41,026 nucleotides of DNA, taken from positions 1-41,026 of the forward strand of contig DYPD01000024.1 in the NCBI GenBank assembly GCA_020720115.1. Reading direction: 5' to 3'. Positions 8,607 through 11,671 of the stretch are shown in pieces. Source of the stretch: Thiomargarita sp. Its GTDB lineage: Bacteria > Pseudomonadota > Gammaproteobacteria > Beggiatoales > Beggiatoaceae. The notes under the pieces are model-generated. The model did no database searches. It had not been told where the DNA came from and saw nothing but the letters and a program-made list of their open reading frames with translations. The position numbers and the translations under genes were made by a program. The stretch's first letter is position 1. The number at the start of each line of letters is the position of its first letter.

Positions 8607-8847
8607 GAGGGGTCGTTAATCTTAGTAAAATCAATGAATAAGGAAAAAAAGCGTGCAGTGGGTCTGGTTTAAACAGAAAACAAAGGGGTATAGCCTTACA
8701 TAAAATCCTAATTTAAGCAAATTCTTAAAGAAATCTACAGGCTATGAGTAAATTTTGAGCTATTTCTCTAAGCATAAGTACAATAGTTTTTCTATAAAAA
8801 TTAAACTTTCTTGGGCTTATATTCAATTTCTACAGATTAAGATAAAA

Positions 8848-9663
8848 TTGCCACCCGTTCTTTTAATTAATGCGACCTCTATGCACCTCATTTCCTTTAA
8901 TTTGTTTCGCAGTTTGAATATTCCTGGTATTACTTACATTAAACCTGAACACTGGCTACGCCATCGTCATGAGATTACAACTGCTGATTGGGTGCTATTT
9001 CCTGAATATTGGCAGGTCAACAGCTTGATTTATGGCTATAAAAAGCGGATTTTTCCCAGTCCCGCCGCGTATCACTTAGGGCACGATAAAGTGCAGATGA
9101 CACGGGTGTTTGAGGCACTGTATCCAGAACATGTACCACATACGCGCATCACGGCAGCCGATACTGATCATCTGTGGGCGCTACCCGAAGAATTTGGCTA
9201 CCCCTTTGTGGCAAAAGAAATCCGCAATTCAATGGGGCAAGGCGTGTTTTTAATTGATTCGCCCGCCGCTTGGCGAATGTATGCACAGGCAAACAACGTT
9301 TGGTATGCGCAAGAATATTTGCCCATCAATCGAGATTTGCGCGTAGTGATTATCGGCGAACAGGTGGCTGTTGCTTATTGGCGGGACATTCCTGAAGGCG
9401 CATTTCACGCCAATGTAGCGCGTGGCGGGCGGGTGAATTTTGCCGACGTACCCAGCGAGGCGCTGAGTTTTGCCTTACAAGTGGCGCGTTCATTGGGTAT
9501 TGATCATGCGGGTTTTGACCTGGTAATGGTTGGCAATCATTTGTATTTACTGGAATTTAACCTGTATTTTGGCAATCAAGGCTTGGCAACGCAAGGCGTC
9601 AATAGCGCCGATCTTATCTATGGCTATTTGTCAGCATTTGAATGCTCATCACACAAATGTTAG
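8848..9663 (+). CDS. RimK-like ATP-grasp protein
   Basis: About 271 residues. It has the ATP-grasp features of the RimK/glutathione-synthetase group: FVAKEIRNSMGQGVF (ATP-binding lysine and glycine-rich loop), YAQEYLPINRDLRVV and HAGFDLVM followed by LLEFNLYFGNQG (metal-binding Glu/Asn). The substrate cannot be assigned; relatives ligate amino acids to peptides or small molecules. The N-terminal region (VLLINATSMHLISFNL, then IPGITYIKPEHW) looks like a conserved pre-ATP-grasp domain, so the start should be before ATG 8881. TTG 8848 fits best; an earlier TTG at 8755 would add 31 Lys/Phe-rich residues that look unrelated. The ribosome-binding site is weak. The gene converges on the methylase gene with overlapping stops (TTAG at 9660-9663). 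Confidence 0.75.
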   Translation: MPPVLLINATSMHLISFNLFRSLNIPGITYIKPEHWLRHRHEITTADWVLFPEYWQVNSLIYGYKKRIFPSPAAYHLGHDKVQMTRVFEALYPEHVPHTRITAADTDHLWALPEEFGYPFVAKEIRNSMGQGVFLIDSPAAWRMYAQANNVWYAQEYLPINRDLRVVIIGEQVAVAYWRDIPEGAFHANVARGGRVNFADVPSEALSFALQVARSLGIDHAGFDLVMVGNHLYLLEFNLYFGNQGLATQGVNSADLIYGYLSAFECSSHKC

Positions 9664-10541
9664 CTTTTAACCCAAAGCTCAAATTGCTCGCTCTCTTGAG
9701 ATGTGCTTTTCCTATTGAAACCATCCGCTGACAGTGCGTAATTAGAAATAAACAACTCATGACCTTTCTCGGCTTTGCTCTGTTTATAATTGTTCATGCC
9801 ATATTGCAATTCCCATTCATACATAGTTGCCCAAGAAAAATTATCTCTAATTTGCGGGCAATCATCATAAGTAATCAACCATGAATGTTTGCATTTTTTC
9901 ATTTCAACAGCAAAATCTGTATGATTAAATGCAGTGTGCAAAATCCCCTTTTTTCCATACAGTTTTGATTGGGTTGCTTTAAAGTAAGGTGGATCAAGAA
10001 AGGTAAATATGTTTTTATTGCCTTCAGATAACAAATGGCTATAGTCCAGATGCGTAATCTTGACTCCTTCAAGTAGCGTTCCTAGCGCGGCCAAGCGAGC
10101 AACCGCAGAAGTCGTAAAGCGCCCAACAAAGGCTTGTTGTGAATAGCCACCGGATTCTACAACACCAGAAAAAGTAATGCGATTCAACACAAAAAAACGC
10201 ACTGCGCGTTCAAATTCAGTCAGCGTATTGCTCTCTGTATTGAGCAACTCATTAAATAACTCTCGCCCATCTGATTTTTCATTTTTTATTTTGCTTACTT
10301 CATAAGCTAAACATTCTGAATCAAGCTGGGCTTGTTTCCAAAAACAATACAATTCTGGATTGAGATCGTTAATCCAAATTTTTAATTGTGGATAGACCTG
10401 TTTTAAGTAAAGAAATACTGAACCACCGCCGACAAAAGGTTCTCTATACTCTTCAAAGTCTTTTGGCAATACCTGCTTTATTTGTTTTATGGCGCGGGAT
10501 TTTCCGCCAGGATACCTTAATGGGCTGTTAATAAGTTTCAT
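9660..10541 (-). CDS. D12-class (Dam-like) DNA adenine N6-methyltransferase of a Type II restriction-modification system
   Basis: 293 residues. It begins INSPLRYPGGKSRAI, the typical start of Dam/DpnM-type enzymes, with AdoMet motif I as EPFVGGGSVFLYL and the catalytic motif IV as FLDPPYF. These transfer a methyl group from S-adenosylmethionine to adenine N6 in a short DNA site; the site cannot be deduced here. Its ATG overlaps the TGA of the upstream gene (ATGA at 10538-10541), so translation is coupled to the endonuclease gene. That placement argues for a restriction-modification methylase rather than a housekeeping Dam. The base composition is more AT-rich than the neighbours, consistent with horizontal acquisition. 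It appears intact. Confidence 0.9.
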   Translation of the reverse strand: MKLINSPLRYPGGKSRAIKQIKQVLPKDFEEYREPFVGGGSVFLYLKQVYPQLKIWINDLNPELYCFWKQAQLDSECLAYEVSKIKNEKSDGRELFNELLNTESNTLTEFERAVRFFVLNRITFSGVVESGGYSQQAFVGRFTTSAVARLAALGTLLEGVKITHLDYSHLLSEGNKNIFTFLDPPYFKATQSKLYGKKGILHTAFNHTDFAVEMKKCKHSWLITYDDCPQIRDNFSWATMYEWELQYGMNNYKQSKAEKGHELFISNYALSADGFNRKSTSQESEQFELWVKS

Positions 10542-11362
10542 ATTGTATTTGGCGAAATTTGAATACTAAGCTTCTTATTGTTAGAGGCTTCCTGGTTTAA
10601 TTGATCCAGTGTCCTTTTTTCTGCTTTAGAGTATTTACCTTGATTTTCATGTAAAAATTTAGCCAGAGTAGATTCACTGCAAGGCATTGATAAAGCCCCG
10701 AATATATTTCTTCCGGTCAATTTTAGACGAGACTTGAACGCAACTGGTTGTGAGTTTAAGCAAAGTGTATCCAAATTTGAATACAAAATTAACTTAAATA
10801 AGCCATCTTTAATATCCGACAGTGAGGGCAGAAATCCTGATGTGGAATTTTTTGATTCTTGGATAACATGGGTGTTTTTATCTATAACCACTTCATCTAT
10901 TGTTAAATGATATACACCGTCAAGATAATTTTTAATCTGTATTGTCGCTTTCATACCATCAGATAAATATTCCAATTCATGAGTGGTTTGACTTTCTCGA
11001 ACAGACGCCGCTTGCGATCCACGCACAGAAATATCCTTAAAATTATTAAAATCACCCATAATTTTGTCTAAATATTTTTCTTGAATAGTGCGGTCATGTA
11101 ATTGTGTACCTGTTGTATTGGCTATTGCTTCGTAACTGTCTAAAGCTGGTTTATATATGCTGACAAAATTATCTTCAATAAGAGTACGATTCCAATGTAA
11201 AGCACTTTGTTTGTAGTGGCTGATTTGTAAAAGTTGCTGGTTGACTATATCAACATTAAGTTTTTGATGGGTAATTTTGTGTTTTTGTGCTTGTGACGGA
11301 TGAGTGTTTTTTTCTGCTGTATCGTAATAGGCTAAAACCACATAAATATTCAGTAGATTCAT
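10538..11362 (-). CDS. C-terminal part of a split Type II restriction endonuclease (putative)
   Basis: 274 residues, AT-rich. I assign it as an endonuclease from its position, stop-start coupled to the adenine methylase, and from a plausible PD-(D/E)xK core: EVVIDKNTHVIQESKNS, with the acidic residue about a dozen positions before an E-S-K triplet. The ATG at 11362 follows directly after a TGA, and the upstream 102-residue ORF is in exactly the same frame. Reading through gives ...RIQFSTIS-stop-MNLLNIYVVLAYY, which looks like one continuous core helix. It is therefore probably the larger piece of a 377-residue enzyme interrupted by a nonsense codon. Reinitiation at this ATG could still make this piece. 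The recognition site is unknown. Confidence 0.6.
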   Translation of the reverse strand: MNLLNIYVVLAYYDTAEKNTHPSQAQKHKITHQKLNVDIVNQQLLQISHYKQSALHWNRTLIEDNFVSIYKPALDSYEAIANTTGTQLHDRTIQEKYLDKIMGDFNNFKDISVRGSQAASVRESQTTHELEYLSDGMKATIQIKNYLDGVYHLTIDEVVIDKNTHVIQESKNSTSGFLPSLSDIKDGLFKLILYSNLDTLCLNSQPVAFKSRLKLTGRNIFGALSMPCSESTLAKFLHENQGKYSKAEKRTLDQLNQEASNNKKLSIQISPNTI

Positions 11363-11671
11363 TCAAGAAATTGTAGAAAACTGAATACGGTCTAAATCTC
11401 CATCTATCCCTTCATCTTTAAGGATAGGAATAATGGTTAGGCGCACAGGAGAGTTAAAGGTATTGTATATTCTATCAAATGGATAACTGCGGGTACGTTT
11501 TGGAGAAACCCATTTTGAATACGCTATCTCACCATTTTGAAATAGTATTTTTCCTGATGTTGTAGCTGTATTTATATCTAAGTTTGTGTATTTGTATGGC
11601 GGTAAGCGAACAGAAGAGAGGAAAGCTTTGTATTGAACATCTTTGATAAAGCCCTCAAAATTGATGTGCAT
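11363..11671 (-). CDS. N-terminal part of the same split restriction endonuclease (putative)
   Basis: 102 residues ending in an in-frame TGA at 11363-11365, with no spacer and no frame change before the next ORF. The end of the piece (IIPILKDEGIDGDLDRIQ) resembles the region preceding the catalytic core of several Type II endonucleases, where the chain continues into a long hydrophobic helix. The start at 11671 has a GGATC motif a few bases upstream. The simplest reading is a single gene interrupted by a premature TGA (one substitution from a Trp or Leu codon). A two-subunit enzyme is less likely, given the exact in-frame junction. It could also be a sequencing error. Confidence 0.55.
   Translation of the reverse strand: MHINFEGFIKDVQYKAFLSSVRLPPYKYTNLDINTATTSGKILFQNGEIAYSKWVSPKRTRSYPFDRIYNTFNSPVRLTIIPILKDEGIDGDLDRIQFSTIS

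What the first reader, a model, noticed from the sequence alone, without database searches (positions are those of the whole stretch)
10538..11671. Restriction endonuclease gene split by one in-frame TGA beside an intact methylase
The 102- and 274-residue ORFs are in the same frame, separated only by TGA, and the protein text reads continuously through it. The methylase downstream is intact. This looks like a recently inactivated restriction enzyme, a system frozen as an orphan methylase, or a gene with stop read-through or reinitiation at the adjacent ATG.
Basis: partly seen in the sequence, partly recalled or inferred. Interest (0 to 1): 0.55.

Follow-up and report, generated by a model that had tools for sequence, protein, structure and literature searches.

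The report
Recently broken restriction enzyme gene
A bacterium's DNA-cutting defence enzyme appears to have been disabled by a single stop signal while the partner enzyme that marks the cell's own DNA stays whole, an ordinary and often-repeated step in the life of such gene pairs.

Summary
One in-frame TGA (11363-11365, minus strand) splits a single 377-codon gene; the frame has no other stop and the downstream methylase is open. Of 64 related systems, 62 cover the site: 59 have Trp, 2 Leu, 1 Met, none a stop. All 52 rows aligned match a PADLOC type II restriction-enzyme model. Reading: an R-M system whose endonuclease died recently. RF2 is present, the tRNA-Trp seen has anticodon CCA, and no tRNA-Sec passes the cut-off, so recoding is not supported. 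Endonuclease death recurs here: 12 of 63 assessable endonuclease genes are broken, by different lesions, against 2 of 62 methylases (Fisher p=0.009). Correction: the methylase is no plain Dam-type enzyme; its closest solved relative (57-58% identity) is M.CbeI, an alpha-class N4-cytosine methylase of GGCC, so m4C at GGCC without cutting is the prediction. Ordinary; low-to-moderate interest. Leaky UGA readthrough, which would insert the native Trp, is not excluded.

The parts
11363..11671 (-). 5' part of the endonuclease gene, residues 1-102 plus the TGA stop
   Evidence: PADLOC REase_II PDLC03572 E 2.4e-19 alone
11363..11365 (-). in-frame TGA at codon 103
   Evidence: Trp in 49 of 51 intact homologues, Leu in 2
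10538..11362 (-). 3' part of the endonuclease gene, residues 104-377, with the putative PD-(D/E)xK core (invariant D259, E272, K274) and its terminal TGA
   Evidence: the motif name is recalled
10895..10897 (-). codon of invariant D259, putative catalytic residue
   Evidence: invariant column; catalytic role inferred
10850..10858 (-). codons of E272-S273-K274, putative ExK motif
   Evidence: E272 and K274 invariant; catalytic role inferred
9660..10541 (-). open methylase gene of the M.CbeI kind (D12 fold, DPPY), start codon overlapping the endonuclease stop
   Evidence: Pfam PF02086 E 1.3e-37; M.CbeI 7m6b E 5.2e-99; 57-58% identity

Best explanation
This is a type II restriction-modification pair in which the endonuclease gene was silenced recently by one nonsense change at a conserved Trp codon, while the overlapping downstream methylase gene stays whole. 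Translation should end after 102 residues, before the catalytic core, so no working nuclease is made (inferred). The methylase should keep modifying its site, by homology GGCC with N4-methylcytosine (inferred), so losing the nuclease is harmless to the cell and the pair is now in effect a solitary methylase. Shown here: the single lesion, the sense residue in relatives, the open methylase frame, and repeated breakage of the same nuclease elsewhere. Inferred: absence of activity, site and methylation type.
For: Single stop in 377 codons. Trp at the site in 59 of the 62 other systems that cover it, no stop in any. REase_II profile in 52 of 52 rows. TGA ends 7 of 28 window genes, counting the endonuclease's own end; RF2 is present; the tRNA-Trp seen has anticodon CCA and a 5-bp anticodon stem by hand count; no tRNA-Sec above cut-off. 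Recent: the window row changes 1 of 39 residues invariant in the other 51 rows and 2 of 66 nearly invariant ones, against 0-10 in the other rows; its end branch is 0.42 for the nuclease and 0.38 for the methylase, so the nuclease shows no marked acceleration over its partner. Recurrence: 12 of 63 nucleases broken against 2 of 62 methylases. Foreign origin: G+C 34% and 38% against 46% for the window; the five nearest intact nuclease rows are Chloroflexota (broken copies such as the Oscillatoriales L021 were not in that tree), and the methylase groups with Chloroflexota rows and L021 in a tree of 20 rows I chose.
Against: No reads, RNA or protein data: an assembly or strain-mixture error at this base is not excluded. 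The ATG directly after the stop could allow reinitiation, and UGA is leaky in general (recalled), so some product may be made. The window nuclease's end branch (0.42) is about twice those of its sister rows (0.12-0.22), which could mean older relaxation, though the methylase shows the same (0.38). Related broken copies (several Poribacteria) are not fully independent, and some lesions may be assembly errors. The fold evidence for a nuclease is weak.
Confidence: 0.87

Rival explanations
1. Leaky UGA: ribosomes sometimes read the TGA as Trp through ordinary tRNA-Trp, which puts back the native residue, so a small amount of working nuclease is still made.
For: Native residue is Trp; the only stop is UGA; the rest of the gene is conserved. 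In a Poribacteria system (L053) another conserved Trp codon (aligned to W160) is also TGA. Paper PMC13092985 (abstract read) reports UGA readthrough by tRNA-Trp(CCA) variants with a 4-bp anticodon stem.
Against: The tRNA-Trp found here has an ordinary 5-bp anticodon stem by hand count (the minimum-energy fold is not a cloverleaf and does not help). No other of 62 covering systems has TGA at this site. No unusual structure around and after the stop (z 0.42). One change in an otherwise invariant residue near the putative active site (G251) hints at further decay.
Confidence: 0.06
2. Functional split enzyme: translation ends at the TGA and restarts at the adjacent ATG, giving 102-aa and 274-aa subunits that assemble.
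For: ATG directly follows the TGA; both halves remain conserved, with a mean N-minus-C identity difference of 0.048 against 0.056 (sd 0.024) for other rows.
Against: No homologue split at this place in 64 other systems. The Met is an ordinary invariant internal residue. In the model the cut falls inside helix 98-106, with strands before and after it. No clear Shine-Dalgarno-like run before the ATG by eye.
Confidence: 0.03
3. Sequence artefact: the gene is whole in the organism and the TGA is an assembly or strain-mixture error.
For: Fragmented assembly, 185 contigs, 4.36% contamination estimate; no reads available.
Against: I noticed no other split gene by eye in the window's ORF list (not tested systematically). 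A single-base substitution is an uncommon consensus error (recalled). Nuclease breakage is common in this family by other lesions too.
Confidence: 0.04

Closest known systems
CbeI / M.CbeI R-M system of Caldicellulosiruptor bescii (GGCC)
   Same: Nuclease gene just upstream of the methylase; window methylase 57-58% identical to M.CbeI with DPPY. Papers: PMC3425538 (abstract and two sections read), PMC8616854 (passages), PMC3679861 (passages; there the nuclease gene was deleted on purpose and the methylase kept working).
   Different: Here the nuclease is broken by nature.
M.Ssp6803II (sll0729) of Synechocystis, GG(m4C)C methylase
   Same: Predicted same site and methyl type; the paper links it to transcription, replication and repair (PMC6560206: title and start of abstract, passages).
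   Different: Sequence kinship with the window methylase was not tested; whether it lacks a partner nuclease was not stated in the passages seen.
PADLOC REase_II PDLC03572
   Same: Joined protein matches at 8.6e-60; 52 of 52 aligned rows match.
   Different: The window copy is broken at codon 103.
Dam-type adenine methylases (TIGR00571; DpnII methylase 2dpm)
   Same: D12 family; weak sequence match to 2dpm, E 1.7e-13.
   Different: Score under the TIGR00571 cut-off (108.7 against 114.85 bits) and far closer to M.CbeI.

Membership tests
Type II R-M system | nuclease gene with kin among type II restriction enzymes | tested here: met
   PDLC03572 E 8.6e-60, PDLC03474 E 6.6e-21; 52 of 52 rows. The label is PADLOC's
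Type II R-M system | cognate methylase beside it | tested here: met
   adjacent in the window and in 63 of 64 other systems (cut by the contig end in L027 and L056); not seen in L061, whose contig ends there
Type II R-M system | intact nuclease reading frame | tested here: not met
   one TGA at codon 103; so it is filed as a degraded system
Type II R-M system | site-specific cutting activity | not testable with these tools
   needs an enzyme assay
PD-(D/E)xK nuclease fold | core fold with D...ExK | tested here: inconclusive
   model pLDDT 92.9; Foldseek no hit at E<=0.001; best VIA-align Z 5.6 and 5.4 over residues 229-377, BsmI at 3.7-4.1 over most of the model, BamHI, BglII and EcoO109I at 3.4-3.8, but Rab GTPases also reach 3.4-3.9 on the N-terminal part; D259, E272, K274 invariant
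M.CbeI-type alpha-class N4-cytosine methylase | sequence kinship to M.CbeI with DPPY | tested here: met
   57-58% identity, E 5.2e-99
M.CbeI-type alpha-class N4-cytosine methylase | m4C in GGCC | not testable with these tools
   inferred from M.CbeI and DmtB (PMC3425538)
Recoded gene (selenocysteine, suppressor or TGA=Trp code) | dedicated tRNA or code change | tested here: not met
   RF2 present; no tRNA-Sec above cut-off, and the four weaker matches are tRNA-Trp(CCA), Ser, Tyr and Arg; TGA ends 7 of 28 window genes including the nuclease itself. Limits: one search scored 150 of 328 candidates, and not every tRNA of the genome was examined, so a suppressor tRNA elsewhere is not ruled out

The most novel reading that the evidence does not exclude
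The UGA works as an attenuator: near-cognate tRNA-Trp restores the native Trp at low frequency, so the cell keeps a trace of restriction at little risk of self-cutting, and nonsense at Trp codons is a reversible low-dose state of restriction enzymes.
Probability: 0.05. Interest if true: 0.5.

Novelty: new member of a known kind. Interest (0 to 1): 0.22.

Why it matters
It is a clean, early example of a restriction system turning into a lone methylase, with the nuclease otherwise almost unspoiled. Among the 57 genomes (the window's own included), 5 carry a close M.CbeI-like methylase and only 1 of these has an intact nuclease of this family, so the set shows stages of what may be the same process. 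It also corrects an easy mis-annotation: the methylase would be called adenine-specific by its Pfam family, but its closest solved relative makes N4-methylcytosine at GGCC.

Tried and rejected
Selenocysteine or a changed code: not supported. Structure around the stop: none unusual. Plasmid or phage kin: no tblastn match in either collection; one viral-contig relative at 37%. Solved structures by sequence: none for the nuclease. Fold search: no strong relative, only weak PD-(D/E)xK-like matches, with unrelated folds at similar Z. HaeIII family (PF09556) elsewhere in the genome: no match. Empty site in relatives: the P-type ATPase beside the pair was found in 6 of 6 relatives searched, but none of the other 8 window genes tested lay in the short stretches held (9 loci), and the ATP-grasp gene gave no match in 6 of 6 (a search without a positive control), so no insertion boundary could be drawn. 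A cyanobacterial census of lone M.CbeI-like methylases was not possible. Promoter and terminator scans gave no excess over shuffles. Dating: with no second stop, neutral change since death is bounded at about 0.02-0.06 per site by the simple models (the lower figures assume indel rates of my choice). The invariant-residue bound printed there (0.033) assumed no change, but one (G251) was seen; with one change I make it about 0.05 by hand.

Broken-gene count: 65 systems (window, G007, G019, 62 loci). Nuclease not assessable in 2 (L043, L061: contig ends). Broken in 12: window, G019, L009, L021, L026, L029, L044, L047, L053, L054, L066, L067. Methylase not assessable in 3 (L027, L056, L061); broken in 2 (L009, L022). 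L017 and L023, flagged odd by the script for a stop at query position 269, were counted as intact because they end there at a full 269 and 274 aa. Without the window itself: 11 of 62 against 2 of 61, p=0.016. The viral locus L080 was not added to these counts. Only intact copies (51 of 64 others) entered the alignment A1 and the nuclease tree; the methylase tree used 20 rows that I chose.

Full report
Observation. On the minus strand, ORF 11671-11363 (102 aa) runs in frame into ORF 11362-10538 (274 aa), interrupted only by TGA at 11363-11365; the next codon is ATG. The joined frame has 377 codons and one internal stop. The methylase ORF 10541-9660 is open, and its ATG overlaps the endonuclease's terminal TGA.

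One gene, not two. The 274-aa part found 62 related loci in genome contigs, and the joined protein found two more genomes among 56 others searched (G007, G019). Of these 64 systems, 51 have the nuclease as one intact ORF of 361-406 aa, 11 have it broken and 2 are cut by contig ends. At the TGA position 49 of 51 intact copies have Trp and 2 Leu. Counting broken or cut copies that still cover the site, 59 of 62 have Trp, 2 Leu, 1 Met (G019), and none has a stop; L029 and L067 do not cover it. Both halves match consecutive stretches of the same PADLOC type II restriction-enzyme profile, and all 52 alignment rows match it. Pfam and NCBIfam gave no matching family for the nuclease.

Structure. An AlphaFold2 model of the read-through protein is confident (mean pLDDT 92.9, pTM 0.90). 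The stop falls inside helix 98-106. The C-terminal part (229-377) resembles PD-(D/E)xK nucleases only weakly (best Z 5.6; BsmI 3.7-4.1; BamHI, BglII and EcoO109I 3.4-3.8), and unrelated Rab GTPases score 3.4-3.9 on the N-terminal part; Foldseek gave nothing at E<=0.001. Invariant D259, E272 and K274 are my candidate catalytic residues; the motif is recalled. The stop lies before all three.

Recoding is unlikely. The genome has RF2 (that match holds a TGA of its own, which I recall as RF2's usual programmed frameshift), no tRNA-Sec above cut-off, and a tRNA-Trp with anticodon CCA whose anticodon stem has five pairs (27-43 to 31-39, counted by hand; the energy fold is not a cloverleaf). TGA ends 7 of 28 window genes, the endonuclease among them. 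The adjacent ATG codes for an ordinary internal Met, invariant in 51 of 51 relatives. A suppressor tRNA elsewhere in the genome was not excluded.

Timing. No second stop or frameshift exists, which bounds neutral change since death to roughly 0.02-0.06 per site under the simple models. Only 1 of 39 residues invariant in the other 51 rows is changed (G251). That could be a second early lesion or harmless. The window's end branch is about as long for the methylase (0.38) as for the nuclease (0.42), so there is no sign that the nuclease was long under relaxed selection relative to its partner, although both are about twice their sister rows. Identity before and after the stop is balanced as in other family members.

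Origin. G+C is 34% (nuclease) and 38% (methylase) against 46% in the window. In the tree of intact nucleases the window joins four Chloroflexota rows with strong support (100/99). The methylase groups with Chloroflexota rows and one Oscillatoriales row (99/97 for the 10-row set; 20 rows chosen). The family mates G007 (both trees) and G019 (methylase tree) lie elsewhere. Besides the window, the nuclease was found in 2 of 56 other genomes and in none of 368 others in a class-wide sample. Transfer is likely but the donor is unknown.

Repeated loss. Of 63 assessable nuclease genes 12 are broken, against 2 of 62 methylases (Fisher p=0.0086; without the window 11 of 62 against 2 of 61, p=0.016). The lesions differ: nonsense (window, L047, L053), DDE-transposase insertion (G019), IS110-type insertion plus nonsense (L066), frameshifts in A-runs (L021, L026, read by eye), truncation, deletion or frameshift (L009, L029, L044, L054, L067). 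Caveats: many are MAGs, assembly errors are possible in both genes, several Poribacteria are close kin, and the loci were found through the nuclease. In the 57 genomes, 9 have a methylase match at 1e-20 and 5 of these are close (E<1e-60, a line I drew afterwards; the other 4 lie at 1e-21 to 1e-25): nuclease intact in G007, broken in the window and G019, not found in G012 and G024 (neighbourhoods of G019, G024 and G012).

The methylase. Its best solved relative is M.CbeI (7m6b; E 5.2e-99; 154 of 265 aligned residues identical, 58%). M.CbeI was annotated as an adenine methylase but makes N4-methylcytosine in GGCC, as does its 57%-identical relative DmtB of Anabaena (PMC3425538; PMC8616854). The window methylase is thus predicted to be a GGCC m4C enzyme. 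This is inference: relatives of similar identity can differ in site. When cbeI was deleted in C. bescii, the methylase kept protecting DNA and growth was comparable (PMC3679861, passages), which is the state proposed here. A GG(m4C)C methylase of Synechocystis, M.Ssp6803II, is linked to transcription, replication and repair (PMC6560206: title, start of abstract and passages), so a lone methylase of this kind could gain a role; its kinship to this one was not tested.

Verdict. An ordinary, recent pseudogene of a restriction enzyme beside a whole methylase gene. The general pattern of lone methylases left by nuclease loss is well known (recalled; of the searches I saw listings only). I did not look for prior reports of this locus, and the organism was not identified.

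Noticed in passing
L091 3783-4601, 6943-7764, 8223-9254: In G019 the M.CbeI-like methylase is present twice (93% identical) around a DUF6575 gene, beside a nuclease gene interrupted by a DDE-transposase element.
   Followed up: partly
L022 1333-2145: Methylase with an internal TAA next to an intact nuclease, a combination one would expect to harm the cell; perhaps a sequence error.
   Followed up: no
L021 about 5081; L026 about 5075: Two nuclease genes are frameshifted at A-runs in the same part of the gene, which could be phase variation, decay or error.
   Followed up: no
L053, codon aligned to W160: A second case of TGA at a conserved Trp of this nuclease, in a Poribacteria MAG.
   Followed up: partly
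L080 5001-6005: A viral contig (IMG/VR) encodes a relative of the nuclease at 37% identity.
   Followed up: no
window 8755-9663: RimK-like ATP-grasp gene beside the pair; no match at E<=1e-20 in any of 6 relatives searched, without a positive control.
   Followed up: no
L078 (G000:C83:13147-13350): A weak D12-type methylase match in the same genome, with one TGA and one TAA inside, score under the cut-off.
   Followed up: no
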